The notes under the pieces were generated by a model. That model did not search any database, was not told where the DNA came from, and saw only the letters and a list, made by a program, of their open reading frames with translations. From Bdellovibrionales bacterium (GTDB taxonomy: Bacteria; Bdellovibrionota; Bacteriovoracia; Bacteriovoracales; Bacteriovoracaceae): DNA of 12,747 bases. The stretch spans positions 1 to 12,747 of the forward strand of contig SXUH01000291.1 in assembly GCA_005791855.1 (NCBI GenBank). The letters run 5' to 3'. Position numbers and translations under genes: made by a program. How positions within the stretch are numbered: the first letter of the stretch is position 1; each line of letters starts with the position of its first letter. Of this stretch, positions 2-12,480 are shown one piece after another.

Positions 2-958
2 CTCCTTTCTGCTCGTGCAAAAGAAGGAAAAAGTTTTGAGAAGATCTACGTCTTTAATTCTGACTCTTTCGCTCCTTCCTGCTCGCTGAGCTCCACCGCC
101 GTCGTCGCCAGACGGGGAGTGGAGGCGGGCGTGTCTCCTCTGGGAGACCTGCTCTACGAGGGCTTCGCGTGCTTCAAGGAACACGTGAGCTCCGCTACGC
201 CCAGTGGGGTGGAGACCATCACCCAGATCTCCGCGGCGACCAGCAAGCTCGACTCCTTCAAAGCCCGATACCCCGGCGCGGCCCAGGTCCGGGAGTGCGC
301 GGGACTTTCCTTCAAGGCCCCCGCCTGGGCCCAGACGGAGACCGCGTACCTCGTCGATCCCCCGTCCTACCTCGGCTGGCTCCAGGCCCAGGCGGAGCTC
401 TCCCTTCCTCTGGAGGTCCGACCGGAGCTCGTCACCGCCATCGACGAAGGCCAGCGGATCCGACTCTCGACCCAGGAAAAGAACGACTTCCTCGTCGACA
501 AGGTCGTCTTCGCCGGCGGCGCCTACAATTCTTTCTGGAAGCAGCTCTCCCCGGAGCCAGGGCTCTCGAGCTCCCGTTTCGTCCAAGGGGCCTACCTCGA
601 GTTCCACCAGGTTGACCTCACCCGGGAGTCCTTCTCCCTAACCTTCGACGGGGACAATCTCATCTACAACTGCCGGCTCGGGAAGCTCCTCCTGGGTTCT
701 TCCACGCAGGAGGTCCGGCACGAACTCGCTCCGCTCGCCGAGCTTAAGGCCCTGCACCGGCGGTTCCAGGACCGGCTTCTGCTCGGGCTCCCTCCGCTGA
801 GCACGGCGACGGTCCGGGTCGGCGCGCGGGAGAAGTCCACCCGGCGCGAGCCCTACGTCGTGAGCGCGGGGAACAAGTTCTTCGTGGGAGGGTTCTACAA
901 GAACGGGTTCACAGTGGCTTTATCTTTGACCAGAAGCTTTTCTCGTCGATGCCTCTAG
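2..958 (+). CDS. FAD-dependent oxidoreductase (DAO/glycine-oxidase-like), 5' end outside window
   Basis: The reading frame is open from the left edge, so the 318 visible residues are the C-terminal part of a longer protein. GTG at 119 is an internal codon, not the start. Seen in the fragment: APSCSLSSTAVVARRG followed by GVSPLGDLL near residues 24-50, a VVFAGGAYNSFW stretch near 168-179 resembling the second FAD-contacting strand and loop of DAO proteins, GAYLEF near 196-201, LLGSST near 230-235, and GGFYKNGF near 296-303, matching the C-terminal flavin/substrate-pocket signature of this fold. The N-terminal GxGxxG dinucleotide-binding motif must lie upstream of the window. The family (D-amino-acid oxidase, glycine oxidase and sarcosine oxidase types) oxidises amines or amino acids with FAD. 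The substrate cannot be told from this fragment. The 3' end overlaps the opposing peptidase gene by 50 bp. Assignment to the fold is fairly firm; the subfamily is not. Confidence 0.8.
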   Translation, partial: LLSARAKEGKSFEKIYVFNSDSFAPSCSLSSTAVVARRGVEAGVSPLGDLLYEGFACFKEHVSSATPSGVETITQISAATSKLDSFKARYPGAAQVRECAGLSFKAPAWAQTETAYLVDPPSYLGWLQAQAELSLPLEVRPELVTAIDEGQRIRLSTQEKNDFLVDKVVFAGGAYNSFWKQLSPEPGLSSSRFVQGAYLEFHQVDLTRESFSLTFDGDNLIYNCRLGKLLLGSSTQEVRHELAPLAELKALHRRFQDRLLLGLPPLSTATVRVGAREKSTRREPYVVSAGNKFFVGGFYKNGFTVALSLTRSFSRRCL

Positions 959-1703
959 CGCGCTCGTAGAACTCGTGCCTGCACTCGTCCACGCCGTCGG
1001 CCTGCTTGCGCAGGTACTTCAGCTCTTTCTTGAACACCGGGAGCCGGCCCGGGCTCTCGACCTTCGCGCCGGTGAGGATCATGTCGCTCAGGTTGTCGAC
1101 GACGCGGTAGTTGGTGCTCTTGATGTCCGGGCAGTGGTAGCTTGGGACGTGGATGAACCCGTAGGTCGTCTCCGGGTAGTTGTAGGTCATCTGGTAAGCG
1201 GTGTTGTTACACACGAAGCTCCCGGCGTTGTTGGAGACGTTCATGAGCTTCCGGTCCCGCTTGTGGAGGGCGCAGTACATGTCCGCTAGCGGATAGGTGA
1301 AGCCGAAGGCGTAGGTCGCCCCGGGGATGATGGGCCTGCCGGTCCGCGCGACCCCGGCGTTGTCCGGGGCATTCGTCGTGAGGTCGAAGTTCCTCGCCAC
1401 GAGCTCGACCTTGAATTCGCAGAAAGCTTCTCCCAGGCCGAGCACCAGCTTCGGCTCCTCCGGCAGGGCCTTGATGCAGGCCTCCTGCTGGTCCCAGGCC
1501 TTGTCGTAGATCGTGTTCAGAGGACAGAGCTTCACCGCCACGTCCTTCGAGTCCTTGAGCTTCTCGGCCACGAGCTTTGCCACAGTCTCCGAGTTGTTCA
1601 GCGGCGCCTTGTTGAACGGGTCGTAGTAGGTCACGAGGACCACGGGCCTTGCCCAGAGGGAGGTCGTCGCGAGGAGGAGGAGGAGGAAGCTGAGTGTTTT
1701 CAT
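909..1703 (-). CDS. Exported pyroglutamyl-peptidase I-like cysteine peptidase (family C15)
   Basis: The 264-residue protein is predicted to remove N-terminal pyroglutamate from peptides. The ATG at 1703 is preferred because it opens directly into a signal peptide (MKTLSFLLLLLATTSLWA, cleavage near residue 18). An upstream in-frame TTG at 1739 would add 12 polar residues in front. The mature part starts with a strand and loop, VVLVTYYDPF (21-30), like the VTGFxPF opening of C15 enzymes. The expected catalytic residues are visible: Glu100 in KVELVARN, Cys165 in NNAGSFVCNNTAY, and His185 in GFIHVPSYH. Known C15 enzymes are cytosolic and about 215 residues long. This one has a leader, a C-terminal extension of roughly 30 residues and seven cysteines in the mature part, so it may act outside the cytoplasm with disulfides. 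It is transcribed divergently from the metallopeptidase gene and converges with the oxidoreductase gene. Confidence 0.86.
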   Translation of the reverse strand: MKTLSFLLLLLATTSLWARPVVLVTYYDPFNKAPLNNSETVAKLVAEKLKDSKDVAVKLCPLNTIYDKAWDQQEACIKALPEEPKLVLGLGEAFCEFKVELVARNFDLTTNAPDNAGVARTGRPIIPGATYAFGFTYPLADMYCALHKRDRKLMNVSNNAGSFVCNNTAYQMTYNYPETTYGFIHVPSYHCPDIKSTNYRVVDNLSDMILTGAKVESPGRLPVFKKELKYLRKQADGVDECRHEFYERARGIDEKSFWSKIKPL

Positions 1704-1845
1704 AGGCGATAGCGTCTCACCGATCCCGACCCAGCTCAACCTTCAAGGTAAAAATTTCCCGACCGGCTTCCGCGGCTAGATCCTTCCAGTCCGGGCCCCT
1801 CCGCACCGATGAGAGGGGAAACTACGAAAACAAGGATTTGCCGTC

Positions 1846-2511
1846 ATGAGAACCGCCGTCACCAGCCTCGCCATCGCCCTCGCTCTCCAGCTCTCCCCGG
1901 CCTTCGCCGGAGAGGCCCACGACCACCGGGCCCCGGGAGTGGCCCGCGCCTTCGGCGACGGGGAGGCCGGGTATCTTCCGCCGGCCCTCGTCCAGCAGGA
2001 GCACCTCCGGGTGGTGGCGATGAAGCTCCAGGACTTCAAGGAAGCCCAGGCGAAGAAGATGAAGGACGCCCTGGCGCTCCTGGAGGCCATCGTGAACTCG
2101 GAGGAGTTCAAGGACCGGGTGGTGAACTTCAAGAACCGCCGGGGCCAGCGGGCCTTCGCCTCGAACCTCGGGCTCTCCAACGAGGAGATCTACCGGAAGT
2201 TCATGGAGGGCCGCGAGGAGCTCCAACCCCAGACCCCGGGGGAGATGAACTTCTTCCTGAAGCTCTACGAGAAGAACAATTCCACCGTCATCGGCTACAC
2301 CTCGCCGAGCGTGAACCTCATCCACGTCAACAACAAGTACTTCCGGGCCTACACCCTGAACGAAGTGGCCGCGAACCTCTGCCACGAGTGGCTCCACAAG
2401 CTCGGCTTCGACCACGCCTCGGCGGCCGAGCACGACTCGGTTCCCTACGGGATCGGCTACGTCGTCAAGGAGCTCGTGCGGAAGGAGCTCTCGCGGCAGG
2501 GCCTCCGGTAG
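1846..2511 (+). CDS. Exported small zinc metallopeptidase with metzincin-type HEXXHXXGXXH motif
   Basis: The protein has 221 residues. An N-terminal signal peptide ends near SPAFA (cleavage around residue 21). A charged helical region follows (about 50-125), and then a C-terminal catalytic region. Residues 180-190 read HEWLHKLGFDH, a perfect HEXXHXXGXXH zinc site with three His ligands and catalytic Glu181. Just after it comes DSVPYGIGYVV (197-207), which sits where metzincins have their Met-turn but contains no Met. The expected activity is endopeptidase cleavage of proteins or cell-envelope peptides in the periplasm or outside the cell. The start is supported by AAGGA at 1832-1836, 9 bp upstream of the ATG. 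The gene ends 10 bp from the convergent transglutaminase-like gene, with both stop codons in one inverted repeat. I do not recognise a named family, so the metzincin label rests on the motif only. Confidence 0.8.
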   Translation: MRTAVTSLAIALALQLSPAFAGEAHDHRAPGVARAFGDGEAGYLPPALVQQEHLRVVAMKLQDFKEAQAKKMKDALALLEAIVNSEEFKDRVVNFKNRRGQRAFASNLGLSNEEIYRKFMEGREELQPQTPGEMNFFLKLYEKNNSTVIGYTSPSVNLIHVNNKYFRAYTLNEVAANLCHEWLHKLGFDHASAAEHDSVPYGIGYVVKELVRKELSRQGLR

Positions 2512-2525
2512 GCCGCCCGGCCTAC
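2508..2525. terminator. Inverted repeat containing both stop codons of two convergent genes
   Basis: An 8-bp perfect stem (GTAGGCCG / CGGCCTAC) with a 2-base centre spans the gap between the metallopeptidase and transglutaminase-like genes. The + strand TAG at 2509-2511 and the minus-strand TAG at 2522-2524 sit in opposite arms. It is GC-rich and symmetric, so it could form a hairpin in both transcripts, but no T-run follows on either strand. It may serve as a shared bidirectional 3'-end structure rather than a classic intrinsic terminator. Confidence 0.4.
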
Positions 2526-3760
2526 TTCTTCGACGCCTCGAAGAGCTTCTCGACGATCGCGGTGAGGGGCTGGCCGTACTTCGCCGAGTCCTGCGACAGC
2601 TTCACCAGCGTCGAGCTCCCGTCGGCGAACTTCTCCACCACCGTCTGCGGGTAGGCGGTGTCCGTCGGCGCCCAGATGAAGTCCGGCATGTTCTTCTCCA
2701 CCGGCTCTCCGCCGAGGATGTTCATGTTCCGGTCGAGCTCGAGGTCGTAGTAGTAGGTCTTCGTCAGGATCTTGTCGTTCTCCGGGCCATCCGTGTCCAG
2801 GAGGTTCGCCGGGCGCATGTTCTTGTAGTTCACCACGGCCGTGACGCCGACGATGGCGTAGGTGGACTTGTGTCTCTTGTCGGCGTTCTTGAAGCCCTTC
2901 TTCTTGTCGAAGAGCTCGAGGGCGTCCTGGAAGGTGGCGCCGTCCTCGTCGGTGAAGACGTTGTAGTAGGTGAGCGTGTAGCTCTCGACCGGGTAGTTCC
3001 ACACCGCGCCGCCGGGGGAGACGTCCGCGATGAAGGTCTTCCCGAGGTTCCCCACGCGGTTCACCAGCGCCCGGTGGAGGGTCCCCGGGTTCGTCCCCTT
3101 GCAGCCCGACTTGAACATCCCACCGGTGCACCGCTCGCCGAGGAAGATCACCTCATCCTGGGCGCGAGCGTAGAGCAGGGACCCGAGGGCCTTGATGTCC
3201 TCCGGGTAGAAGGTCACGGGGATCCCCGAGGGCGTCTTGAGGGTCACCTTCTTCACGGGCCTTGGCATCTTCTGGGCCGCGGCCGCCCAGCCGTCGCAGA
3301 TCCCGCGCCACTCGTTCATCTCGCTCTCGTCGCTGAGCTTGGTCGAGTACTTGGTGAGGGTCATCTGCGGGTCCCCGACGAGGAGGTCGTACTTCTCCGC
3401 CGGCGAGAGGATGTCCTCCTTCCCGGAGTAGGCGTAGAGCGGGTGCTTGGTCTTGAGTTCCTTGTACTTCTTGAAGATGGCCTTGGCCTGCTCCTCCGTC
3501 GGGTCCGGCCTGTTCAGGACCGCGAAGTGCGGGTCCCGGTAGCGCGCGGCCAGCAGACCATGGTAGTGGGGCCAGAAGTTTCCGGACCACAGGTCGAGGG
3601 TGGTCTTCCCGGAGTTCAGGCCCCGCTTCTGGATCTCGGTCAGGGAGGTGATCTCCTTCTGCCCTTCGAGGAGCCGGGCCGTCTTCTCGTTCTCGGGGAT
3701 CGGCTCGACGGCGTGGGCGAGGGAGGCGAGGAGGGTCAGGGAGAAAAGATATTTTTTCAT
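2522..3760 (-). CDS. Exported transglutaminase-elicitor-like protein (shorter paralogue)
   Basis: The 412-residue protein has a signal peptide ending near LAHA (residue 17). The core resembles the oomycete transglutaminase elicitor family (GP42/M81D type): EWRGICDGWAAAA (150-162) with candidate nucleophile Cys155, then FYPEDIKALGSLLYA (184-198), NPGTLHRALVNRVG (224-237) with candidate His229, FIADVSP with candidate Asp246, WNYPVESY (254-261), and PDFIW (359-363). Such enzymes crosslink glutamine and lysine side chains with release of ammonia. The triad assignment is mine, from motif order. The residue after Cys155 is Asp, where the neighbouring paralogue has His. It is the second gene of a two-gene unit. 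Its SD (AGAGGA) overlaps the stop codon of the upstream paralogue, 7 bp away, which suggests translational coupling. The family call is fairly strong; activity is inferred. Confidence 0.78.
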   Translation of the reverse strand: MKKYLFSLTLLASLAHAVEPIPENEKTARLLEGQKEITSLTEIQKRGLNSGKTTLDLWSGNFWPHYHGLLAARYRDPHFAVLNRPDPTEEQAKAIFKKYKELKTKHPLYAYSGKEDILSPAEKYDLLVGDPQMTLTKYSTKLSDESEMNEWRGICDGWAAAAQKMPRPVKKVTLKTPSGIPVTFYPEDIKALGSLLYARAQDEVIFLGERCTGGMFKSGCKGTNPGTLHRALVNRVGNLGKTFIADVSPGGAVWNYPVESYTLTYYNVFTDEDGATFQDALELFDKKKGFKNADKRHKSTYAIVGVTAVVNYKNMRPANLLDTDGPENDKILTKTYYYDLELDRNMNILGGEPVEKNMPDFIWAPTDTAYPQTVVEKFADGSSTLVKLSQDSAKYGQPLTAIVEKLFEASKK

Positions 3761-3767
3761 GTGTCCT

Positions 3768-5321
3768 CTATTTCCTGGAAAGGTCCACCAGGCGGTCGAT
3801 GATTTGGATCAGGGGCTGGGGCTTCGGCGTGCGGAGCTCGCAGTCTACCCAGAGGAGCCCGCCGGTGCCGTTGACCGGAACCACCGGACAGGTCGGCCTG
3901 AAGCCCAGGTACTTCTCGCTCTCTTCGTAGGTGAAGCCGTGGGCGGCCCTGGCCGCGGCCCGGATCTCCTCCGGGGCGACGGGGTCCTGCTCGAAGTTCC
4001 ACTTCGGGAGCCCCGGGAGTGGTCGGAAGTAGTTCTTCCAGTTCTTCGGGACGACCCAGAAGAAGTCCGGCTGGCCCGTCTTGCTGTCGAAGGCGGAGGC
4101 GCCCCCGGTCCGCTTCACGCGCCACTGGCCTCCGACGATGTTCCCCCGGGCGTCGATCTCCAGGTCGTAGTTGAAGTCCATGTCGCCGACCTTGTCGTCC
4201 TTCGGAAGGTTCGTCTCCGCCTTCTTCGGGAACTCCCAGTCGACGTAGAAGAGCTTCATGTCCACGCCGACGATGTGGGTGGCGTCCTTGTTCCGCGAGG
4301 CGCGGAACCGGTCCTTCTCGCCGTACTCCTTGATCGAGAGCAGGCTCTTCGAGAGCGGGCCCTCGTCACCGGTCTTCGGGTTGTAGTAGACGAGCTCGTA
4401 GCCCGCCACCGGCTGGTTGGCGATGGTGAGCTCGGAGGACTTGTCGACGACGAAGCTCCGGCCTTCGATCCCGAGGATGTTCGTCACGGCGGTGTGGAAG
4501 ATCGCCGGGTGCACGTCGGCGCACTCCGGATCGGTGTAGCGGCCAAACTCGTCCCGGGTCGGCTTCTTCTTGTTACAGCGGGTCCCTTCGAAGAGCACGT
4601 CGTTCTGGATGAGGGAGTTGGCCCACATGAGGGACACGAGGGCCTTGATGTCGTTGGGGTAGAACGGAAGCTTCTTTCCGTTCGGGAGGGTCACGACGAC
4701 GGTCTTCTCCGGCCGTGGGTAGTGGCCCGCGGCGATCGCCCACCCGTGGCAGATCCCTTCCCAGGATTCGATCACGTCGTTGGCCTTGTTCACCTTGTAG
4801 CCGTTCGGCATGGCGATGCTCGAGATGAAGGACCACTGCTTGTTCGCGCCGTAGCGTTCGGTGTAGTCCCAGATCCGCGAAGTGAGGTCGAAGGAGGTAT
4901 CTCCGAGGAGCAGGTCGTACTTCTCGGTGGGCGCGAGCTTGGCGAGCTTCTTCTCCTCCAGGGTGTAGATCTTCGGGTAGACTTCCCGGGAGCGCTTCTT
5001 GAAGTCGCTGATGTTTTTGTGGTAGTTGAGGTGCTTGTCCAGGCTGAAGATGAAGGTATTGTAGTCCTTGTCCTGGTAGGTGTTGGCCGCGAGCCCCGCG
5101 CGCAGTGGCCAGTAGGAGCCGCCCCAGGGCTGGACCTTCGTCCGGGCCTTGTTGAGACCTCGGCGCTCCATCTCGTGGATGTTCCAGACGTAGTCCTGGC
5201 CCTCGGTGAGGGCCTCGAGGCGGGCCTCGATCCTGGAGGTCTCGTAGGGCTTGAAGGGGTACGAATTCGTCTGCGCGTGGACGGATCCCCAGACCAGAGC
5301 CACACCGATTAAGAGCTTCAT
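3768..5321 (-). CDS. Exported transglutaminase-elicitor-like protein (longer paralogue)
   Basis: The 517-residue protein has a short signal peptide ending near SVHA (residue 16). The transglutaminase-elicitor signature is clear: SWEGICHGWAIAA (186-198) with candidate nucleophile Cys191, FYPNDIKALVSLMWA (220-234), HPAIFHTAVTNILG (271-284) with candidate His276, FVVDKSS with candidate Asp293, ANQPVAGY (301-308), and QPDFFWVVP (417-425). It aligns with the downstream paralogue from the N-terminal RRGLNKARTK segment (RGLNSGKT there) to the last helix (PQPLIQIIDRL versus GQPLTAIVEKL). It carries extra sequence before the Cys motif and about 80 extra residues near the C-terminus, with Cys478 and Cys494 as a possible disulfide. 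The predicted role is protein or peptide crosslinking in the periplasm or outside. GAGG lies 7 bp upstream of the ATG. It is the first gene of its operon, separated from the upstream operon by a terminator. Confidence 0.8.
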   Translation of the reverse strand: MKLLIGVALVWGSVHAQTNSYPFKPYETSRIEARLEALTEGQDYVWNIHEMERRGLNKARTKVQPWGGSYWPLRAGLAANTYQDKDYNTFIFSLDKHLNYHKNISDFKKRSREVYPKIYTLEEKKLAKLAPTEKYDLLLGDTSFDLTSRIWDYTERYGANKQWSFISSIAMPNGYKVNKANDVIESWEGICHGWAIAAGHYPRPEKTVVVTLPNGKKLPFYPNDIKALVSLMWANSLIQNDVLFEGTRCNKKKPTRDEFGRYTDPECADVHPAIFHTAVTNILGIEGRSFVVDKSSELTIANQPVAGYELVYYNPKTGDEGPLSKSLLSIKEYGEKDRFRASRNKDATHIVGVDMKLFYVDWEFPKKAETNLPKDDKVGDMDFNYDLEIDARGNIVGGQWRVKRTGGASAFDSKTGQPDFFWVVPKNWKNYFRPLPGLPKWNFEQDPVAPEEIRAAARAAHGFTYEESEKYLGFRPTCPVVPVNGTGGLLWVDCELRTPKPQPLIQIIDRLVDLSRK

Positions 5322-5485: not shown

Positions 5486-6484
5486 TTAGAACCGGACGGT
5501 GAAGTCGGCCCCGAAGGCGGTGGTCGAGGGACTGAACTTCAGGTTAGACTGGGTGAACATCCCCACACTCGAGAGGTACTTGATCTTCGGGAAGTAGGAG
5601 AAGCCGACCCGGCCCCGGTGCGGGAGGTTGTTGTTCCATTCCCGGGATCCGGTCTGCGGGCCCTTCTGGTCCCAGTCGAGGATGACACTCGAAGTGAACA
5701 ACCACTTGTCATTGAACCGGTAGTTGGCGTAGGGACCGCCGCTCACGATCATGGTCTGGAGTGCCGTGTAGTTGAAGCCCGGGCCCTGCGGGGCCTTGAT
5801 GTTACTCTTGTAGTAGATCCGGTAGATCTGGTGCGAGAGACCCACGGACCAGTGCGGGTTCGGCAGGTTGAAGTTAAAGCTCTGGGCCAGCACCCACCCG
5901 TAGCGCATCTCATCGTTGCGGGAGATGCTCGAGGTCGGGGCTTCGTAGGAAGCGGTGGTGAAGAGCGTCCCGAGGTTCGACACCTTGTAGGACGGAAGGC
6001 TCAGGTAGGCCCGGGCGTTGAAGAACTCCGCGTCCGGCCGGTTGACCCCGGTCTTGGTTTGGACTTCCTCGGTGTACCCGTTCACCGCCGAGAGCGTGGC
6101 CCCGATGGCCCAGTTCGGAGTGAGTTCGTGGCGCAGGTTCGCGGCGTGGAAGCTCTGGAGGGGAGCTCGCCCTTCCTGGAACACGTTGTAGGTTTCGGTC
6201 GAGGGCCCGGAAGCCGTGGGCCCCAGGAACTGCTGGTAGTAGGTCAGGGAGGTGCGGTCGAGGAGCCGTCTGCCGAAGCTCTTCTGCGGCATCCCGATCT
6301 GGATGACGTTGCCCTGGTTGTTCTGGCTCTGGCTCTGGTTCATCCCCTGGAGGTTCGAGTTCCGGGCGAGGGACGGCGTGTGCCGGGACTGCGCGCGGGC
6401 AACCTGTGCCATGAACATCAGGACCAGGGCCGCGAGGGCCAGGATAAGGAGTTGAGAGGATACAGAACTTCGATTCAATTTCAT
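5486..6484 (-). CDS. Predicted outer-membrane beta-barrel protein with Gln/Asn-rich N-terminal segment
   Basis: The 332-residue protein has a long signal peptide with a basic start (MKLNRSS) and a hydrophobic core, cleaved near AQVARA (residue 31). The mature N-terminus (about 43-62) is rich in Gln and Asn (NQSQSQNNQGN). From about residue 75 on, alternating polar and hydrophobic strands with many aromatic residues run to the end. Examples are SLTYYQQFL, WAIGATLSAV, ARAYLSLPS, HWSVGLSHQIY and RVGFSYFP. The last residues are FTVRF, with the terminal Phe typical of proteins inserted by the BAM machinery. No specific porin or transporter family is recognised. The ATG overlaps the stop of the upstream membrane-protein gene by 4 bp (ATGA), so translation is probably coupled. 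It is the last gene before the strong terminator. A structural or channel role in the outer membrane for the products of this operon is possible but unproven. Confidence 0.78.
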   Translation of the reverse strand: MKLNRSSVSSQLLILALAALVLMFMAQVARAQSRHTPSLARNSNLQGMNQSQSQNNQGNVIQIGMPQKSFGRRLLDRTSLTYYQQFLGPTASGPSTETYNVFQEGRAPLQSFHAANLRHELTPNWAIGATLSAVNGYTEEVQTKTGVNRPDAEFFNARAYLSLPSYKVSNLGTLFTTASYEAPTSSISRNDEMRYGWVLAQSFNFNLPNPHWSVGLSHQIYRIYYKSNIKAPQGPGFNYTALQTMIVSGGPYANYRFNDKWLFTSSVILDWDQKGPQTGSREWNNNLPHRGRVGFSYFPKIKYLSSVGMFTQSNLKFSPSTTAFGADFTVRF

Positions 6485-8703
6485 AAGGCCGCCCCAGCAG
6501 TTTTTTGGTTGTTAGCAATATTTACCCCGTCGAGCTTCTCTCTGTCCGAGAGGAACTCTTTGAGATTCTCGATCACAGTCATCCGTTGACTGCTCTCGAT
6601 ATCTTTCCCTAAACGATTCATGATCTCTTCGCGGATCCCGACGTATTCTAACGTTAAGTTATGGAGGAAGGTTTCGTACATCAAAGATATCTTGCTCCGG
6701 GCGAGCATCTCGGCCGGCGTGAAGAGCTTGCCGGAGAGGTCCCGCTGCACGAGCATGGCGAGCTCCTCCCGCTTGGCGGAGTAGATGCTCTGGAGCACCC
6801 AGACGGTGTTCCGCACGGACCAGATGTACATGTTGAGGCCCATGTTCGACGCTTCCTCCGCCTTCGAGTTCTGGAGGTAGAGGATCTCCCACTGGCGCTT
6901 CATGTAGGCGCGGAACTCCTTGGTGTCGAGGAGGTTCTTCTGCTTGAAGAGGTCCGAGTTGGCCTCGAGGTTCTTCATCACCGAGCCGAGCTCCTTGCGG
7001 TTCTTGCTGTAGAACTCGGCGAGCTTCTGGATCTTCTCGTAGCCCTCCGGCTTCTTGAGGTTCTGGTAGCGCCAGGAGAGGATGTTGGTCATCTCCTGCA
7101 TGAAGACGAAGGACCGGCCCACGTAGTAGTCGTTGCGCTTCTGCTCCTGGTCCTGGTCGAGCATCACGTAGATCTGGTCCAGGATGAAGCGGGACATGCG
7201 GTCCCAGAGGTAGAGCTGGAGCTGCTGGGTCCGGTTGGTTTCGTTGAAGAGGAACTGCTTCATCTTCGCCGAGAGGTTCGGGTTCTCGGAGCGGAGCTTG
7301 AAGATCAGAGCGTTGTAGCGCTCGAGCTCTTCCCAGGTGCTCTCGACCTGCATCGGGAAGTTGTACTGGGTCTCGAGCTGCTCGAGGCGGCCCATCCGCG
7401 AGGCGTACTCGATGTTCTCCTCGTAGGCGATCTGCATCTGCTTGAAGTTACTCATGCGCTCCATCCAGCTCTGCTTGTCCACCAGCGGGACGTCGGTGGA
7501 GATGAGCAGGTTCAGGAAGGACGGCTTCGCGTTCTGCTTGACACCGTTGCCGAGGCCCAGCACCAGGGGCTCCTGCGGATCGGTGGTGATCTTCGACTGG
7601 TAGATGATGTGGGCGAGGGCGGGGGAGTCCTTCGCGGGAGCCGCGCTCTTGGTGCTCACGGAGTCGGAGACGGTCCCCGGCTTCGGGGCCGGCTTGGTGT
7701 CGGCGTAGGCTTCCTTGGACGACATGTCGTTGACGGCGACCGACCCCTTGTCCAGGAGCTGGCTAATCTCGGTCTTCACGTCGAGGTAGACGGACCGGAC
7801 CCGGCCCACCGCCTGCATGGCGTGCGGGTTCATCGGCATGGTGATGAAGTAGTAGGTGAACGGACCGTAGACGGCCAGGGCCACGGAGTAGCCCAGGTTG
7901 TTCTTCACGGTCTGGAAGAACCAGATGATCTTCCCGATGGTGTAGCGGTAGAGGAGGCCACTGGCGTTGCTGCCGGGGCGGGCGATCACGCGGTCGAAGA
8001 AGTTCCCGACGTTCTTCCCGAAGATCGCCAGCTTCATGGCGGCCTTCGAGAGCCGGTGGGCACGGACCTTGGTGTTCACGATCTTGTTTAGGACCGCGCG
8101 GTGCTGGCCGAAGACCAGGTGCCGCTCTTCCCAGGTGAGGACCGGGTCCATCTCCGTCTTGAGGATCTTGTTGTAGACGTTCTTGATCGCCGGATCCGAA
8201 GCCCCGTCCCGGATGGGGAGGCGGACGGTCTTCGACCGGTAGGCGGTCCGGAGGAACCGCTCCACGGACTGGACGAGCAGCGTGTGCGACTTCCCCTCCG
8301 AGGCCTGGAGGTACTCGACGTTCAGGAAGTTGTAGAAGTGGTTGAGGATCGGACAGCTCAGGTCCATCTCGTAGGCGTCGATGAACTGGACCTTCAGCGC
8401 CTCTTTCTCAGAGGTGAAGGTCAGCTCCCCGTCCAGGTTGAAGTGGTCGAAGCGCTCTTCCGGGCCTTCGGCCTGGATCCGCACGCGCCGGAGGACGAAC
8501 CCGGTCCCGCCGAGGATCAGGCCCACGGCGAGGGATCCGGAGAGGCCCGCGCCTTCGTACTCGAAGCCGCTCATCCCGTTGTGGTTGCGGATGGCGGTGA
8601 TGGCGCCGTCGATCCCGAAGGCGGCCCGGCCTCCGTCCTGGAGAATCGTCTCCAGGAAGGGTTGGATCTTCGGAACGTCAGCGGTGAGTAGGTCGGTTCT
8701 CAT
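6481..8703 (-). CDS. Large predicted membrane-associated protein of unknown function
   Basis: I do not recognise a family for this 740-residue protein. It has no signal peptide. A glycine-rich hydrophobic stretch (about 53-71, LAVGLILGGTGFVLRR) and a clear hydrophobic segment (about 268-289, GYSVALAVYGPFTYYF) may cross or touch the membrane. Between them is a charged alpha/beta region. A low-complexity Pro/Ala/Ser/Thr/Lys linker (about 328-360) follows. The C-terminal half (about 410-720) is almost wholly helical and very rich in Gln, Glu, Lys, Met and aromatic residues, with possible coiled coils and several Trp. Its start is 15 bp after the ATP-grasp gene, with GAGGAAG 7 bp upstream of the ATG, and its stop overlaps the barrel gene. 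This fits an inner-membrane scaffold or adaptor between a cytoplasmic ligase and an envelope component. That role is inference only. Confidence 0.75.
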   Translation of the reverse strand: MRTDLLTADVPKIQPFLETILQDGGRAAFGIDGAITAIRNHNGMSGFEYEGAGLSGSLAVGLILGGTGFVLRRVRIQAEGPEERFDHFNLDGELTFTSEKEALKVQFIDAYEMDLSCPILNHFYNFLNVEYLQASEGKSHTLLVQSVERFLRTAYRSKTVRLPIRDGASDPAIKNVYNKILKTEMDPVLTWEERHLVFGQHRAVLNKIVNTKVRAHRLSKAAMKLAIFGKNVGNFFDRVIARPGSNASGLLYRYTIGKIIWFFQTVKNNLGYSVALAVYGPFTYYFITMPMNPHAMQAVGRVRSVYLDVKTEISQLLDKGSVAVNDMSSKEAYADTKPAPKPGTVSDSVSTKSAAPAKDSPALAHIIYQSKITTDPQEPLVLGLGNGVKQNAKPSFLNLLISTDVPLVDKQSWMERMSNFKQMQIAYEENIEYASRMGRLEQLETQYNFPMQVESTWEELERYNALIFKLRSENPNLSAKMKQFLFNETNRTQQLQLYLWDRMSRFILDQIYVMLDQDQEQKRNDYYVGRSFVFMQEMTNILSWRYQNLKKPEGYEKIQKLAEFYSKNRKELGSVMKNLEANSDLFKQKNLLDTKEFRAYMKRQWEILYLQNSKAEEASNMGLNMYIWSVRNTVWVLQSIYSAKREELAMLVQRDLSGKLFTPAEMLARSKISLMYETFLHNLTLEYVGIREEIMNRLGKDIESSQRMTVIENLKEFLSDREKLDGVNIANNQKTAGAAL

Positions 8704-8718: not shown

Positions 8719-11700
8719 TTACTGCTGTTGCTGCTGCTGGGTCTGGTTGTAGCTATTGCCCAGGGAGATCGTGCTCAGGATCGGCCGCAGGGTGATCGAG
8801 CGGGAGAGGTCGACCTTCCGCGCGAAGCTCACGCCGTAGAACTGGTGGTTCCCGATCGCGGTCAGGGCTTCGTAGTCCGGAGAGGCTTTCTTGATCGCCT
8901 TCCGGATCTTCGGACCGAAGGCCCGGAGCTGTGCCTTGTTCGCGCTCGGCAGAGCGGAGCGGATCTCGTCCCAGCCGATCTCGAGCCCGAGTTCCTTGGC
9001 GAAGAGGATGTTCTTCGCGTTCTCGAGGGCCGGGATCACTTCCTGGAGGGCCTTCACCTTCACCTGGTTCGAGTTCGGCATCATGTAGCCGAAGAGGGAC
9101 CCGTACTTGTTCAAGACGGCGTCGTAGACTTCCCGGGAGTCGTTGATCCCGTTGCGGATCTCGGTGATGAGGCCGGTGAAGAAGTGCGGAACGATCCGGT
9201 CGGCCAGACCGTAGAGCGGCTGGCGCTCCACCGAGATGTCCACCGAGAGGCCTTCCAGCGACGCGGCCGAGACCCCCAGGAAGTTCCCGTAGAAGTTCAG
9301 GAAGTAGGCCTGGGCGATGGCGCCGTCGGAGAGGGCCTTGGCCTCCATCTTCGTCGTCTCGTCGATCTGGTGGTAGTGGATCACTTCGTGTCCGGCGGTG
9401 TAGATCTGGGTCAGCGGATCGAGTTCCTTCCGCACCCAGATGAAGATGTCCGAGTCGGAGAAGAGCCCGTGGGACTTCCGCTTCTTGGCGAAGCACTCTC
9501 CCGCGTCCTCGCGGGCGGAGAGGTGGTTCTCCCGGATCTTCTGGGACGAGAGGAAGGAGATGCGGTTCGGCGTGAGGTCGGTCACGAAGATCTCTTCGAG
9601 GGCCGTGCCCTGCTTCTTGGCGAACTGCTCGAGGTTGTACTTAGCGTACGGCATGGCCGGCAGGAGCTCGAAGAGCTCCGAGAGCTCGACGTTGGTCGAC
9701 TTCATGATGTCGTTCATGCGGGCGAGGAACGGGAACTTGTTGAAGTGGGCCACGCGCTTCTTCGCGAGGAAGGCCCCGCGCTGGTCGCGCTCGAGCTTCT
9801 TTGCCTCCGCCTGGACGGCCATCCACTCGGCCCGGGCTTCCTTGATGTGGGCCGGGATGTAGTCCGAGTCGATGAGGGACTCGCCGGTGGCGAACTCCTT
9901 CTGGGAGGCGATGGAGAAGTCGTCGGTCTTCTGGAGGCTCGCCTCGGAGAGGCCGAAGGTTTCGAACTTCAGCTCCGGGTGGACCATGTCGGTGGAGAAG
10001 AGCTTGGCGAACTCGATGGCCTTCTCGGAGTTGATCATGCGGTCTCGGGAGATGTTCATGAAGGTTTCGATCAGCCTCAGCATGTTGATGGCCGCTTTCC
10101 CGGAGATGTTCTCTCTCGGGAAGGACGCCTCGATGCTCGAGCGAAGGATCGCCAGGATCTGCGTGTACTTCTTGAGGAGGAGCTTGTCGCCCTGGGCCTT
10201 CTCGACCATGGCGTCCTTGAGGTTCTTCAGGATCTTCCGGTCGTGCTTCCGGTGCTCCATGGTGTAGTTCTGGTAGACCACGTCCATGTCCAGGACGATG
10301 AGTTCGTCCATCATGTCTCGGAAGCCCTTCGGGAGCTGGCGCTTGCTCTCGAGAGCTTCCAGCGCGGTGACGAGGTTGATCTGGTTAGTGTTGATCTTCT
10401 CGAAGTAGGCGGCGACGTCCAGGGAGGACTGCTTGCTCTCGAGCATGTCGATGATCTTGTACACCGGCTCGATGGCCCGCGGGTTGAGGAAGCTCAGGAC
10501 TTCCCGGCACTGGGTCTTAAGCGAGAGCGAGAGGCCCAGCATGATGTAGTTGTCGGCCGTGTCGTTCTTCAGGTGGTTGTACATCTCCGTCGCGAGGCGG
10601 GCCACCTGGATGAGCTGGGCCGCCACGAACATCGGGAGGTGCGTCTGGAACGGCACCGGCGTCTTCACCTTGATGAATTCCGCCGCGGAAACGGACTCGG
10701 AGGTTCCGATGTCGTCGATCACCACGAACGGGGCGTAGCCGCCGCCCTTGGAGGTGTTCACGATGGAGCTCATCGGTCCTTTCTCTTCCGGGGCGTACCT
10801 CACCAGAGCGTTGTGGGTCATCTTCGGGAGGGCCTTCGGTCCGCCGCCGTAGAAGACCCAGAGCCGGATGTCGGCCGCGAGGTTGGCGAAGCGGGTTCCC
10901 TGCTTGTCCTTCATGGCCACGGGGATCCGGGCGATCTTCACGAGCTTCTGGTAGGCGTAGTGGGACGGGTTCTTCCGGATCTTATTGAGGACTTCTTTCT
11001 TCGATTCTTCCGAGAGGGTCTTCATGATGTAGATCCCCGAGCCGCCGGAGAGGTTCGGCGCCTTCACCACCCAGTCGTTCGGGTTGCGCTCGATGACCTT
11101 CACCGACTCTTTCTTCGGCGGAAGGGTTTCCGGTGGGACGATCTTCTGGCCCACGGAGGAGAGGCCGAGCTCCTTGAGCTTGGCAGCGAAGTACTTCGGA
11201 GCGTGGGTCGTCAGCGCGGCGAGGATGATCTTGTTATCGAGGATCCGGTTGAGGCCGCCCATGTAGATCTTGCGGTTCAAGATAGCGTCCAGGAGTCCTG
11301 GAACAGCATAGTCAGACTGGAGCGGGATCGGATTTCCGTTCACGTCGAGGACCAGGGGAGCGTCGCCTTCCTGCCCGAGCTTGAGGGAGTCCCGGAGGTA
11401 GATCGGCTCGTTGGTGTCCGGGTCCCGGAGGATGATTCCCTTGTCCGCGTCGAAGAGGGCGGAGTCGGCGTTGATCCGCGAGTAGATGGCCGTGACGATC
11501 GGGTTGGAACCGTTGATGGTGCGCAGGCGGATGTAGCCCTTCTCGTCTTGGAAGAGCTGGACCGGATCGGCGTAGACTAGCCCGGAGTAAGCCGCGAGGT
11601 TGTGGATCTCCGGGGCCGCACCGTTCATCCCGCCCGGAGGGAGGATCACCTGGATCCCGTCTTTGATCCCGGTCCAGTCTTCACCGAGGGTCCGGTAGGT

Positions 11701-12480
11701 CTCCGCGAGGACCTGGAAGTGGTCGTTCGGCATCATCCGGCCAAGGGAATCCAGGACCTCCGGATTCTGCTCGTAGTGGCCCTCGAGGACGTTCATATTG
11801 TTCGAGGCACCCGACGGGGCGCCGGCGTTGAGCTCGAGGATCCGGAAGGGGAGCTTCGGGAGCTTGTCGAGCTTCTTGGACTTCAGGATGTCGTCGAAGT
11901 TCTTGGACTGCTCGAGGTAGTCTTCCACTAGGACGAGGTCCAGGCCGACGTTATCGAAGAAGGGGTACTTCTTCATGTTCGGGTGGTGGAGCTGCGGGAA
12001 GTAGTTCGGCGACTCCTTGATCGCGTCGATGAAGATCTGCTTGATCTCGACCGGGAGGGACTTCACGAAGCCGGAGTCCTTGATGGACTTCGAGCCGTAG
12101 ATGTCCTGGATCACGCAGCGGAGGGAGACGATGAGGGTCTGGGCCGCTTTCTCGATCGTGTTGAAGACGGACTTCTGGAGCGGGACGATGGTGGTGGTGC
12201 ACGGAACGGTGAAGATCTTGTAGTTTCCGTTTTCGTCGGACTTCTGGAACGTCAGATCCCGCTTCTTGATGAAGCGGGTGAGGTTCCGCGATTCCTTCAG
12301 GTGCACCGAGACTTCCCGTGTGAGGAGGTTCTTCACCAGGGCCTTGGAGTGCATGTACGGGGCACGCTTTCTTCGAGAAGAGAAGATGTAATTGGCAACA
12401 TCCACTTTCGCACTTCCGATAAATCCGAGGTTCGGATTGTATGGTTGTAACTTGCGACGCTGACTTTTCACTTTGATCAC
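8719..12480 (-). CDS. Circularly permuted ATP-grasp protein fused to a helical region and a C-terminal HEXXH metallopeptidase-like domain
   Basis: The protein has 1253 residues and no signal peptide. Residues about 90-590 carry the ordered landmarks of circularly permuted ATP-grasp proteins (COG2308-like): ILELNAGAPSGAS (214-226), VILPPGGMNGAAPEIH (278-293), YSRIN (333-337), VPGLLDAILNRK (393-404), VVKAPNLSGGSGIYIM (471-486, with Lys473 and the Gly-rich ATP loop), YQKLVKI (510-516), ADIRLWVFYGG (536-546), NALVRYA (557-563) and NTSKGGGYAPFV (575-586). Such enzymes are predicted to join carboxylates to amines through acyl-phosphates. A long helical region (about 610-920) may be analogous to the alpha-E partner of this family. 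Residues 1027-1038 include HEVIH (1031-1035), a zinc-peptidase motif. The tail ends in six Gln. The start is GTG with GAGAGG 6 bp upstream. It is the first gene of the operon. The ATP-grasp call is strong; the peptidase call is moderate; the substrate is unknown. Confidence 0.85.
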   Translation of the reverse strand: MIKVKSQRRKLQPYNPNLGFIGSAKVDVANYIFSSRRKRAPYMHSKALVKNLLTREVSVHLKESRNLTRFIKKRDLTFQKSDENGNYKIFTVPCTTTIVPLQKSVFNTIEKAAQTLIVSLRCVIQDIYGSKSIKDSGFVKSLPVEIKQIFIDAIKESPNYFPQLHHPNMKKYPFFDNVGLDLVLVEDYLEQSKNFDDILKSKKLDKLPKLPFRILELNAGAPSGASNNMNVLEGHYEQNPEVLDSLGRMMPNDHFQVLAETYRTLGEDWTGIKDGIQVILPPGGMNGAAPEIHNLAAYSGLVYADPVQLFQDEKGYIRLRTINGSNPIVTAIYSRINADSALFDADKGIILRDPDTNEPIYLRDSLKLGQEGDAPLVLDVNGNPIPLQSDYAVPGLLDAILNRKIYMGGLNRILDNKIILAALTTHAPKYFAAKLKELGLSSVGQKIVPPETLPPKKESVKVIERNPNDWVVKAPNLSGGSGIYIMKTLSEESKKEVLNKIRKNPSHYAYQKLVKIARIPVAMKDKQGTRFANLAADIRLWVFYGGGPKALPKMTHNALVRYAPEEKGPMSSIVNTSKGGGYAPFVVIDDIGTSESVSAAEFIKVKTPVPFQTHLPMFVAAQLIQVARLATEMYNHLKNDTADNYIMLGLSLSLKTQCREVLSFLNPRAIEPVYKIIDMLESKQSSLDVAAYFEKINTNQINLVTALEALESKRQLPKGFRDMMDELIVLDMDVVYQNYTMEHRKHDRKILKNLKDAMVEKAQGDKLLLKKYTQILAILRSSIEASFPRENISGKAAINMLRLIETFMNISRDRMINSEKAIEFAKLFSTDMVHPELKFETFGLSEASLQKTDDFSIASQKEFATGESLIDSDYIPAHIKEARAEWMAVQAEAKKLERDQRGAFLAKKRVAHFNKFPFLARMNDIMKSTNVELSELFELLPAMPYAKYNLEQFAKKQGTALEEIFVTDLTPNRISFLSSQKIRENHLSAREDAGECFAKKRKSHGLFSDSDIFIWVRKELDPLTQIYTAGHEVIHYHQIDETTKMEAKALSDGAIAQAYFLNFYGNFLGVSAASLEGLSVDISVERQPLYGLADRIVPHFFTGLITEIRNGINDSREVYDAVLNKYGSLFGYMMPNSNQVKVKALQEVIPALENAKNILFAKELGLEIGWDEIRSALPSANKAQLRAFGPKIRKAIKKASPDYEALTAIGNHQFYGVSFARKVDLSRSITLRPILSTISLGNSYNQTQQQQQQ

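What the first reader, a model, noticed from the sequence alone, without database searches (positions are those of the whole stretch)
8719..12480. ATP-grasp ligase module and HEXXH peptidase-like domain in one 1253-residue protein
The N-terminal half has the full motif series of circularly permuted ATP-grasp proteins (COG2308-like), including Lys473, the Gly-rich loop at 478-482 and SKGGG at 577-581. The C-terminal third carries HEVIH at 1031-1035 in a predicted helix, followed by an acidic helix (about 1040-1052) that could give the third zinc ligand. Comparative genomics of amidoligases by Iyer, Aravind and colleagues linked stand-alone circularly permuted ATP-grasps with alpha-E, transglutaminase-like and peptidase genes. 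Having the bond-making and a putative bond-breaking domain in one chain, with a long helical spacer, suggests a self-contained peptide synthesis/processing or tagging/untagging enzyme. I do not recall this architecture being described.
Basis: partly seen in the sequence, partly recalled or inferred. Interest (0 to 1): 0.82.

Follow-up and report, generated by a model that had tools for sequence, protein, structure and literature searches.

The report
Ligase-peptidase fusion with glutamine tail
Some relatives of predatory bacteria carry one large protein that joins an amide-bond-making enzyme to a probable zinc-dependent bond-cutting domain, ends in a short glutamine tail and travels with a partner gene, which hints at an undescribed peptide tagging-and-trimming system.

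Summary
The frame is on the minus strand (12480..8719, 1253 aa). It has a circularly permuted ATP-grasp domain with catalytic-type residues conserved (Pfam CP_ATPgrasp_2 3.7e-19), a helical spacer, and a C-terminal domain whose HExxH and Glu1046 are invariant in 34 of 34 fused homologues down to 31% identity. The one detached copy found has lost both His. The third zinc ligand is unresolved: the model puts Glu1046 on the same helix, and no fold match of this domain is significant.

It is not self-contained. A 740-aa partner occurs in the same 58 of 368 genomes of the phylum, usually followed by a protein with a signal sequence and, by eye, a beta-barrel pattern. Transglutaminase-like genes lie nearby more often than expected, but not always.

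Four of 11 relatives lacking the HExxH domain and the partner also end in QQ, so the tail may belong to the ligase.

Most likely: an amide ligase with a built-in trimming metallopeptidase, in an envelope-linked module. Ligase-hydrolase chains are known (trypanothione synthetase-amidase, cyanophycin synthetase), so this is a new variant.

The parts
8719..12480 (-). c0: 1253-aa protein, ATP-grasp + helical spacer + HExxH domain + Gln tail
   Evidence: GAGAGG 6 nt before the GTG start
10681..12303 (-). circularly permuted ATP-grasp domain, residues about 60-600 (K473, loop 478-482, SKGGG 577-581)
   Evidence: Pfam PF14403/PF04174; 3n6x by sequence and as Foldseek top hit of a poor model, E 0.016, prob 0.96; motif alignment
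9901..10653 (-). poorly conserved helical spacer, residues about 610-860
   Evidence: 1 invariant residue among 700-850 in 35 sequences; helical in the model, ten-residue pLDDT means about 64-92
9271..9603 (-). HExxH domain core, residues about 960-1070
   Evidence: invariant motif; strands then HExxH helix, mean pLDDT 74.6 for 860-1253
9376..9390 (-). HEVIH 1031-1035
   Evidence: 34 of 34 fused homologues
9343..9345 (-). Glu1046, invariant acidic residue after HExxH (candidate third ligand, unproven)
   Evidence: 34 of 34
8722..8751 (-). conserved C-terminal tail YNQTQQQQQQ (residues 1244-1253)
   Evidence: 45 of 45 distinct complete fused ends finish in QQ; synonymous codon variation; YNQTQQ pattern matched 9 of 19 genomes, once each, in c0
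6481..8703 (-). c1: 740-aa partner protein of unknown fold (no structure run), no Pfam family
   Evidence: 15 bp after c0; same 58 of 368 genomes as fused c0 (against 32 and 42); beside c0 in 31 of 31 family-f1 loci with room; no Pfam match better than E 0.0063 in any of 17 members
5486..6484 (-). c2: 332-aa protein with a hydrophobic N-terminal signal-like stretch, beta-barrel-like by eye, ends in VRF
   Evidence: 4-bp overlap with c1; present in 26 of 27 loci with room; alignment A5; Pfam OMP_b-brl only at E 0.55
3768..5321 (-). 517-aa transglutaminase-like protein (TGase_elicitor, PF16683), signal sequence by eye; associated, not core
   Evidence: Pfam 5.7e-37; Cys191 invariant, 26 of 26
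2522..3760 (-). 412-aa transglutaminase-like protein (PF16683), signal sequence by eye; associated, not core
   Evidence: Pfam 2e-29; Cys155 invariant, 26 of 26

Best explanation
c0 is an ATP-dependent carboxylate-amine ligase of the circularly permuted ATP-grasp class with a built-in zinc-dependent hydrolase. The ligase activates a carboxylate as acyl phosphate and joins it to an amine; the HExxH domain cuts the product, trimming, releasing or reversing it. The conserved tail ending in -Gln-Gln-COOH is most economically read as a peptide segment that the ligase itself handles, in cis or on a neighbouring subunit. The enzyme works with c1 and a probably exported protein c2, so the product or its target probably belongs to the cell envelope. 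Shown: architecture, residue conservation, co-occurring partner, tail. Inferred: ligase active (about 0.85), HExxH domain a metal hydrolase (about 0.75), both act on the same product (about 0.4), envelope role (about 0.45), tail handled by the ligase (about 0.3).
For: ATP-grasp by Pfam, PDB sequence search and Foldseek top hit; catalytic-type residues invariant in 31 of 31. HExxH + E1046 invariant in 34 of 34 down to 31% identity, while the one detached copy found, in a genome without c1, has YELIY instead. In the order, matches to the C-terminal domain (43 of 129 genomes) lie in full-length fused frames, except 8 genomes with shorter frames; 7 of these touch a contig end and the eighth (G027) was not checked. 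c1 in the same 58 of 368 genomes. Tail; four of 11 complete non-fused ATP-grasp relatives also end in QQ (L065, L066, L126, L127), in genomes without a c1 match, against 6 of 504 other complete genes. Transglutaminase-like genes nearby more often than expected. Analogous systems: Rlo (passages), cyanophycin synthetase (passages).
Against: No biochemical data. Most of the ATP-grasp part of the model has pLDDT below 50; the C-terminal domain has no significant fold match. E1046 lies 11 residues past H1035 on one continuous modelled helix, too far to share a zinc unless the helix breaks. c0 shows no signal sequence while the transglutaminases seem to, so they may never meet. Transglutaminase-like genes are common in these genomes (1-18 copies in 23 genomes) and were seen within 10 kb in only 17 of 31 family-f1 loci and 4 of 9 f22/f26 loci. 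Seven of 11 non-fused relatives lack the QQ end. The number of terminal Gln varies from 2 to 8, which argues against one exact fit of the C-terminus. The detached degenerate copy is a single case.
Confidence: 0.4

Rival explanations
1. Functional analogue of glutathionylspermidine or trypanothione synthetase-amidase: c0 makes and hydrolyses a small amide metabolite in the cytosol, and the tail and partners only regulate or localise it.
For: The only PDB relative by sequence at E 1e-3 or better, 3n6x, is annotated putative glutathionylspermidine synthase; synthetase-amidase in one chain is known (listing).
Against: Co-occurring partner c1 and a probably exported c2 and nearby transglutaminase-like genes suggest more than small-molecule metabolism; the second domain here is HExxH, not a cysteine amidase (nature of the known amidase recalled).
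Confidence: 0.2
2. The QQ tail is a short docking motif for c1 or another partner, unrelated to catalysis.
For: Conserved terminal motif after a weakly conserved, low-confidence linker; c1 always co-occurs.
Against: Four of 11 non-fused ATP-grasps, in genomes without a c1 match, also end in QQ.
Confidence: 0.3
3. The HExxH domain is a non-catalytic metal-binding or structural domain.
For: No significant fold match; third ligand not identified.
Against: HExxH, including the Glu that would be the general base (role recalled), invariant in 34 of 34 at 31-84% identity; strand-then-HExxH-helix order of zincins in the model.
Confidence: 0.2

Closest known systems
CP_ATPgrasp_1 / CP_ATPgrasp_2 (COG2308-like) proteins with alpha-E and transglutaminase partners (Anbu-type operons)
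   Same: Same ATP-grasp class above Pfam cut-off; a transglutaminase-like gene sometimes nearby (passages on the Anbu operon; on Alpha-E with CP_ATPgrasp_1).
   Different: No alpha-E match in the window's genome; the transglutaminases are PF16683; fused to an HExxH domain; c1/c2 partners; Q tail. The name COG2308 is recalled, not from a profile search.
Cyanophycin synthetase CphA1
   Same: ATP-grasp-containing ligase and metallopeptidase-like active site in one chain; the hydrolase makes primers from the ligase's polymer (passages).
   Different: CphA1 also has a Mur-ligase-type M domain (fold recalled) and an N-terminal HxxEH site; here a circularly permuted ATP-grasp and a C-terminal HExxH site.
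Trypanothione / glutathionylspermidine synthetase-amidase
   Same: Synthesis and hydrolysis of the same amide by two domains of one chain (start of abstract in listing); 3n6x is annotated in that family.
   Different: Its hydrolase is a cysteine amidase (recalled); no partner module or Q tail recalled.
Rlo operon (RloA secreted protease, RloB inner-membrane inactive transglutaminase, RloC cytosolic ATP-grasp) and RimK/RimB
   Same: ATP-grasp + protease + transglutaminase theme serving envelope functions; RimK adds Glu to a protein C-terminus (passages).
   Different: Related to RimK, separate chains, aspartic protease (passages).

Membership tests
Circularly permuted ATP-grasp (PF14403/PF04174) | Profile match above curated cut-off | tested here: met
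   69.4 against 32 bits and 39 against 23.1 bits
Circularly permuted ATP-grasp (PF14403/PF04174) | ATP and Mg residues (Lys, Gly loop, D/R, N in N-[T/S]-S-x-GGG) | tested here: met
   K473, G480, G482, D537, R539, R561, N575, T576 in 31 of 31; residue roles recalled
Circularly permuted ATP-grasp (PF14403/PF04174) | ATP-grasp fold in the model | tested here: inconclusive
   Foldseek top hit 3n6x but E 0.016 and low pLDDT
Circularly permuted ATP-grasp (PF14403/PF04174) | Ligase activity | not testable with these tools
   none
Zincin metallopeptidase (HExxH) | Conserved HExxH | tested here: met
   34 of 34
Zincin metallopeptidase (HExxH) | Third zinc ligand | tested here: inconclusive
   E1046, E1147, E1153, H912 invariant, C996 33 of 34; no coordinates to measure distances; one continuous helix in the model
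Zincin metallopeptidase (HExxH) | Zincin fold | tested here: inconclusive
   strands then HExxH helix; no significant Foldseek match
DUF6782 (PF20573) | Score above curated cut-off | tested here: not met
   window 13.3 bits whole protein, 15.6 for the C-terminal part, against 27; weak match in 24 of 25 members, best E 6.3e-5; no match over the cut-off in 191 genomes
COG2308/alpha-E/transglutaminase operon | Alpha-E gene partner | tested here: not met
   PF04168 in 1 of 144 genomes, not the window's, which is about 60% complete; no Alpha-E among the matches of 17 c1 members
COG2308/alpha-E/transglutaminase operon | Transglutaminase-like gene nearby | tested here: met
   two PF16683 genes in the window; not in every relative

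The most novel reading that the evidence does not exclude
c0 is a self-tagging enzyme: its ATP-grasp domain extends the enzyme's own C-terminal -Gln-Gln (or that of a sister subunit) with amino acids or a peptide, using the encoded Gln run as primer, and the adjacent HExxH domain cuts the product free, giving a self-primed, self-releasing peptide maker whose product is handed to the envelope through c1 and c2.
Probability: 0.13. Interest if true: 0.88.

Novelty: new variant of a known kind. Interest (0 to 1): 0.62.

Why it matters
It adds a natural case of putative opposing ligase and hydrolase sites held in one chain and kept together over three families of a phylum, with a co-occurring partner of unknown fold. 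The conserved C-terminal Gln tail gives a direct, cheap test of whether an ATP-grasp enzyme can use its own C-terminus as substrate. The module could also mark an undescribed envelope peptide or protein-modification pathway in relatives of predatory bacteria.

Tried and rejected
Profile search of the C-terminal domain against PDB sequences gave one hit, part of centromere protein E, at E 0.2. Foldseek of both models gave no significant metallopeptidase, only an M32 carboxypeptidase at E about 3, and scattered weak SprT/IrrE-type phage hits. PADLOC found nothing for c0-c2; NCBIfam found nothing for c0; PHROGs gave one unnamed family at E 0.0015 over residues 989-1046. DUF6782 as a home was dropped: proteins found with that profile here are assorted HExxH proteins. 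Alpha-E identity of c1 was tested by Pfam only and dropped. A tag shared by many proteins was considered for the Q tail and dropped: the exact pattern occurs once per genome, in c0, in 9 of 19 genomes; of the 10 without a match, four (G059, G315, G306, G352) have c0 with a variant tail and six have no fused c0. A plasmid home: one weak hit, to the ATP-grasp part. A small precursor peptide was considered but not searched for. The transglutaminase link was first tested with one genome per genus (6 of 12, expected 0.73, P about 3e-5); for two genera (g1, g139) the chosen genome had the gene although others of the genus do not, and two copy numbers were assumed, so I recomputed it. Paper searches that led nowhere.
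Full report
Observation. The frame is at the stated coordinates on the minus strand: 12480..8719, GTG start with GAGAGG six bases upstream, 1253 residues. The window is bases 1-12747 of contig C239 of a genome that is 59.8% complete. Relatives in genome contigs carry titles such as Bacteriovoracaceae, Halobacteriovoraceae, Bacteriovorax, Oligoflexia and Proteobacteria, all MAGs in that list.

ATP-grasp half. Pfam CP_ATPgrasp_2 (3.7e-19) and CP_ATPgrasp_1 (6.4e-10) both pass their cut-offs. The only PDB relative by sequence at E 1e-3 or better is 3n6x, a putative glutathionylspermidine synthase (5.1e-6; 7.4e-5 by profile), also Foldseek's top hit (prob 0.96, E 0.016). In 20 of the fused sequences held and 11 non-fused family members E216, N218, R335, R412, D415, K417, K473, G480, G482, Q511, D537, R539, R561, N575 and T576 are invariant. 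The model of this half is poor (most of it pLDDT below 50), so the fold rests on sequence.

HExxH half. HExxH is present in 35 of 35 fused sequences. In a more diverse set of 34 fused C-terminal domains, with identity to the window down to 30.8%, H1031, E1032, H1035, Q1038 and E1046 are invariant; one further row, the detached copy, was left out of that count. The detached copy (L125, 251 aa) lies in a genome whose only match to the full profile is that fragment and which has no c1 match; it reads YELIY. It is one case. AlphaFold of residues 860-1253 (23 rows, pLDDT 74.6, pTM 0.75) gives strands at 974-977, 994-1000 and 1010-1017, then a helix 1022-1052 holding HEVIH and E1046. A third ligand could not be named: E1046 is on the same helix; E1147, E1153, H912 and R1086 are invariant too but are kept in the degenerate copy, which suggests a structural role. 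No fold match was significant. Pfam DUF6782 is matched weakly by 24 of 25 members, best 6.3e-5, with the window below cut-off, so I do not file it there.

Module. In loci of the window's family c1 lies beside c0 in 31 of 31 with room, and c2 in 26 of 27 (L068 is the exception). In family f22, c1 and c2 lie beside c0 but are transcribed divergently in the loci read (L117-L121; L132 for c1). Fused c0 was found in 43 genomes of the order, 12 of f22 and 3 of f26. c1 was found in the same 58 genomes and in none of the other 310 of 368. For f22 and f26 I read the fused protein itself in 9 loci; the remaining genomes rest on profile matches, some split over contigs. Non-fused ATP-grasp relatives (L063-L067, L126-L131) had no c1 or c2 in the stretches held. 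c1 has no Pfam match better than E 0.0063 in any of 17 members, and I ran no structure of it. c2 has a hydrophobic N-terminal stretch and, by eye, a beta-barrel pattern; its Pfam support is only E 0.55.

Context. PF16683 transglutaminase-like genes lie within 10 kb of fused c0 in 17 of 31 family-f1 loci (5 of the 14 without one, L042, L047, L057, L072 and L076, are cut short on one or both sides) and in 4 of 9 f22/f26 loci (L117, L121, L123, L124). These genes are common (1-18 per genome in 23 genomes). With one genome per genus, 6 of 12 have one against 0.73 expected (P about 3e-5), but that choice was favourable; with g139 counted as lacking it, 5 of 12 (P about 4e-4), and with f22/f26 loci alone, 4 of 8 against 0.42 expected (P about 4e-4), L132 left out. 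These figures treat genomes as independent, and some stretches held were shorter than 10 kb. The link looks real but loose. The signal sequences of the two window proteins are by eye; the hydropathy cut-off did not flag them. Other neighbours in some relatives are a protein glutaminase-like gene, an L,D-transpeptidase-like gene and an OmpR-type regulator with a histidine kinase.

The tail. Of the complete fused proteins that I read, 45 of 45 distinct ends (76 loci, many of them the same genome fetched twice) finish in QQ (three loci cut by contig ends, L025, L048 and L058, left out). Among 50 distinct coding ends, selected for ending in QQ, the residues are Y 50, N 48, Q 48, T 45, Q 49, Q 50; codons vary synonymously (TAC 22/TAT 28; all four Thr codons; CAA 25/CAG 25 at the last fixed Gln) and all three stop codons occur, so selection is on the protein. 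Residues 1229-1253 are modelled with pLDDT below 50. Of 504 other complete genes in the same stretches 6 end in QQ, five of them one gene family. Four of 11 complete non-fused ATP-grasps end in QQ (L065, L066, L126, L127; the last two closely alike), in genomes without a c1 match; seven do not. The exact coding pattern for YNQTQQ was found in 9 of 19 genomes searched, once each and in c0. The tail thus seems to track the ATP-grasp rather than the HExxH domain or c1.

Mechanism. Shown: two conserved putative active sites in one chain, a co-occurring partner, a conserved C-terminal tail. From knowledge of the class: ATP-grasps activate carboxylates and make amides (also in passages); RimK adds Glu to a protein C-terminus (passages). 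Inferred: the hydrolase trims or releases the ligase's product, as the N domain of cyanophycin synthetase does (passages), and the tail is handled by the ligase. Recalled and not tested: Pup ligation at a C-terminal Gln/Glu, and tubulin tyrosination by the ATP-grasp-like enzyme TTL with removal by an HExxH peptidase.

Novelty. I found no description of this architecture in the held library: search listings 14, 16, 34, 39, 40, 66, 67, 88, and passages of seven papers; the other listed papers were not opened. The 2009 amidoligase survey is not held and could mention it. Since ligase-hydrolase chains are known, this is a new variant of a known kind; the tail and the module are the parts most worth testing.

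Noticed in passing
window 1846-2511 (+): 221-aa protein with a signal-like N-terminus and the metzincin-type motif HEWLHKLGFDH (HExxHxxGxxH; motif name recalled), its His, Glu and Gly conserved in 14 of 14 relatives; only weak YbeY-type profile matches.
   Followed up: partly
window 909-1739 (-): Pyroglutamyl-peptidase-like protein (Peptidase_C15, 1.3e-18) with a signal-like stretch; Glu112, Cys177 and His197 conserved in 13 of 13. An exported form seems unusual (recalled).
   Followed up: partly
L125 9678-10433 (-): Detached, degenerate copy of the C-terminal domain (YELIY for HExxH), 251 aa, with two transglutaminase-like genes nearby.
   Followed up: yes
L065, L066, L126, L127: ATP-grasp relatives without the HExxH domain that also end in QQ.
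   Followed up: partly
genomes listed: 1 to 18 TGase_elicitor (PF16683) genes per genome in the 23 genomes searched, a large transglutaminase-like repertoire.
   Followed up: no
L145 (G072:C145): The one genome of 144 with Alpha-E carries it directly beside a weak match to the window's ATP-grasp, which looks like the classical pair.
   Followed up: no
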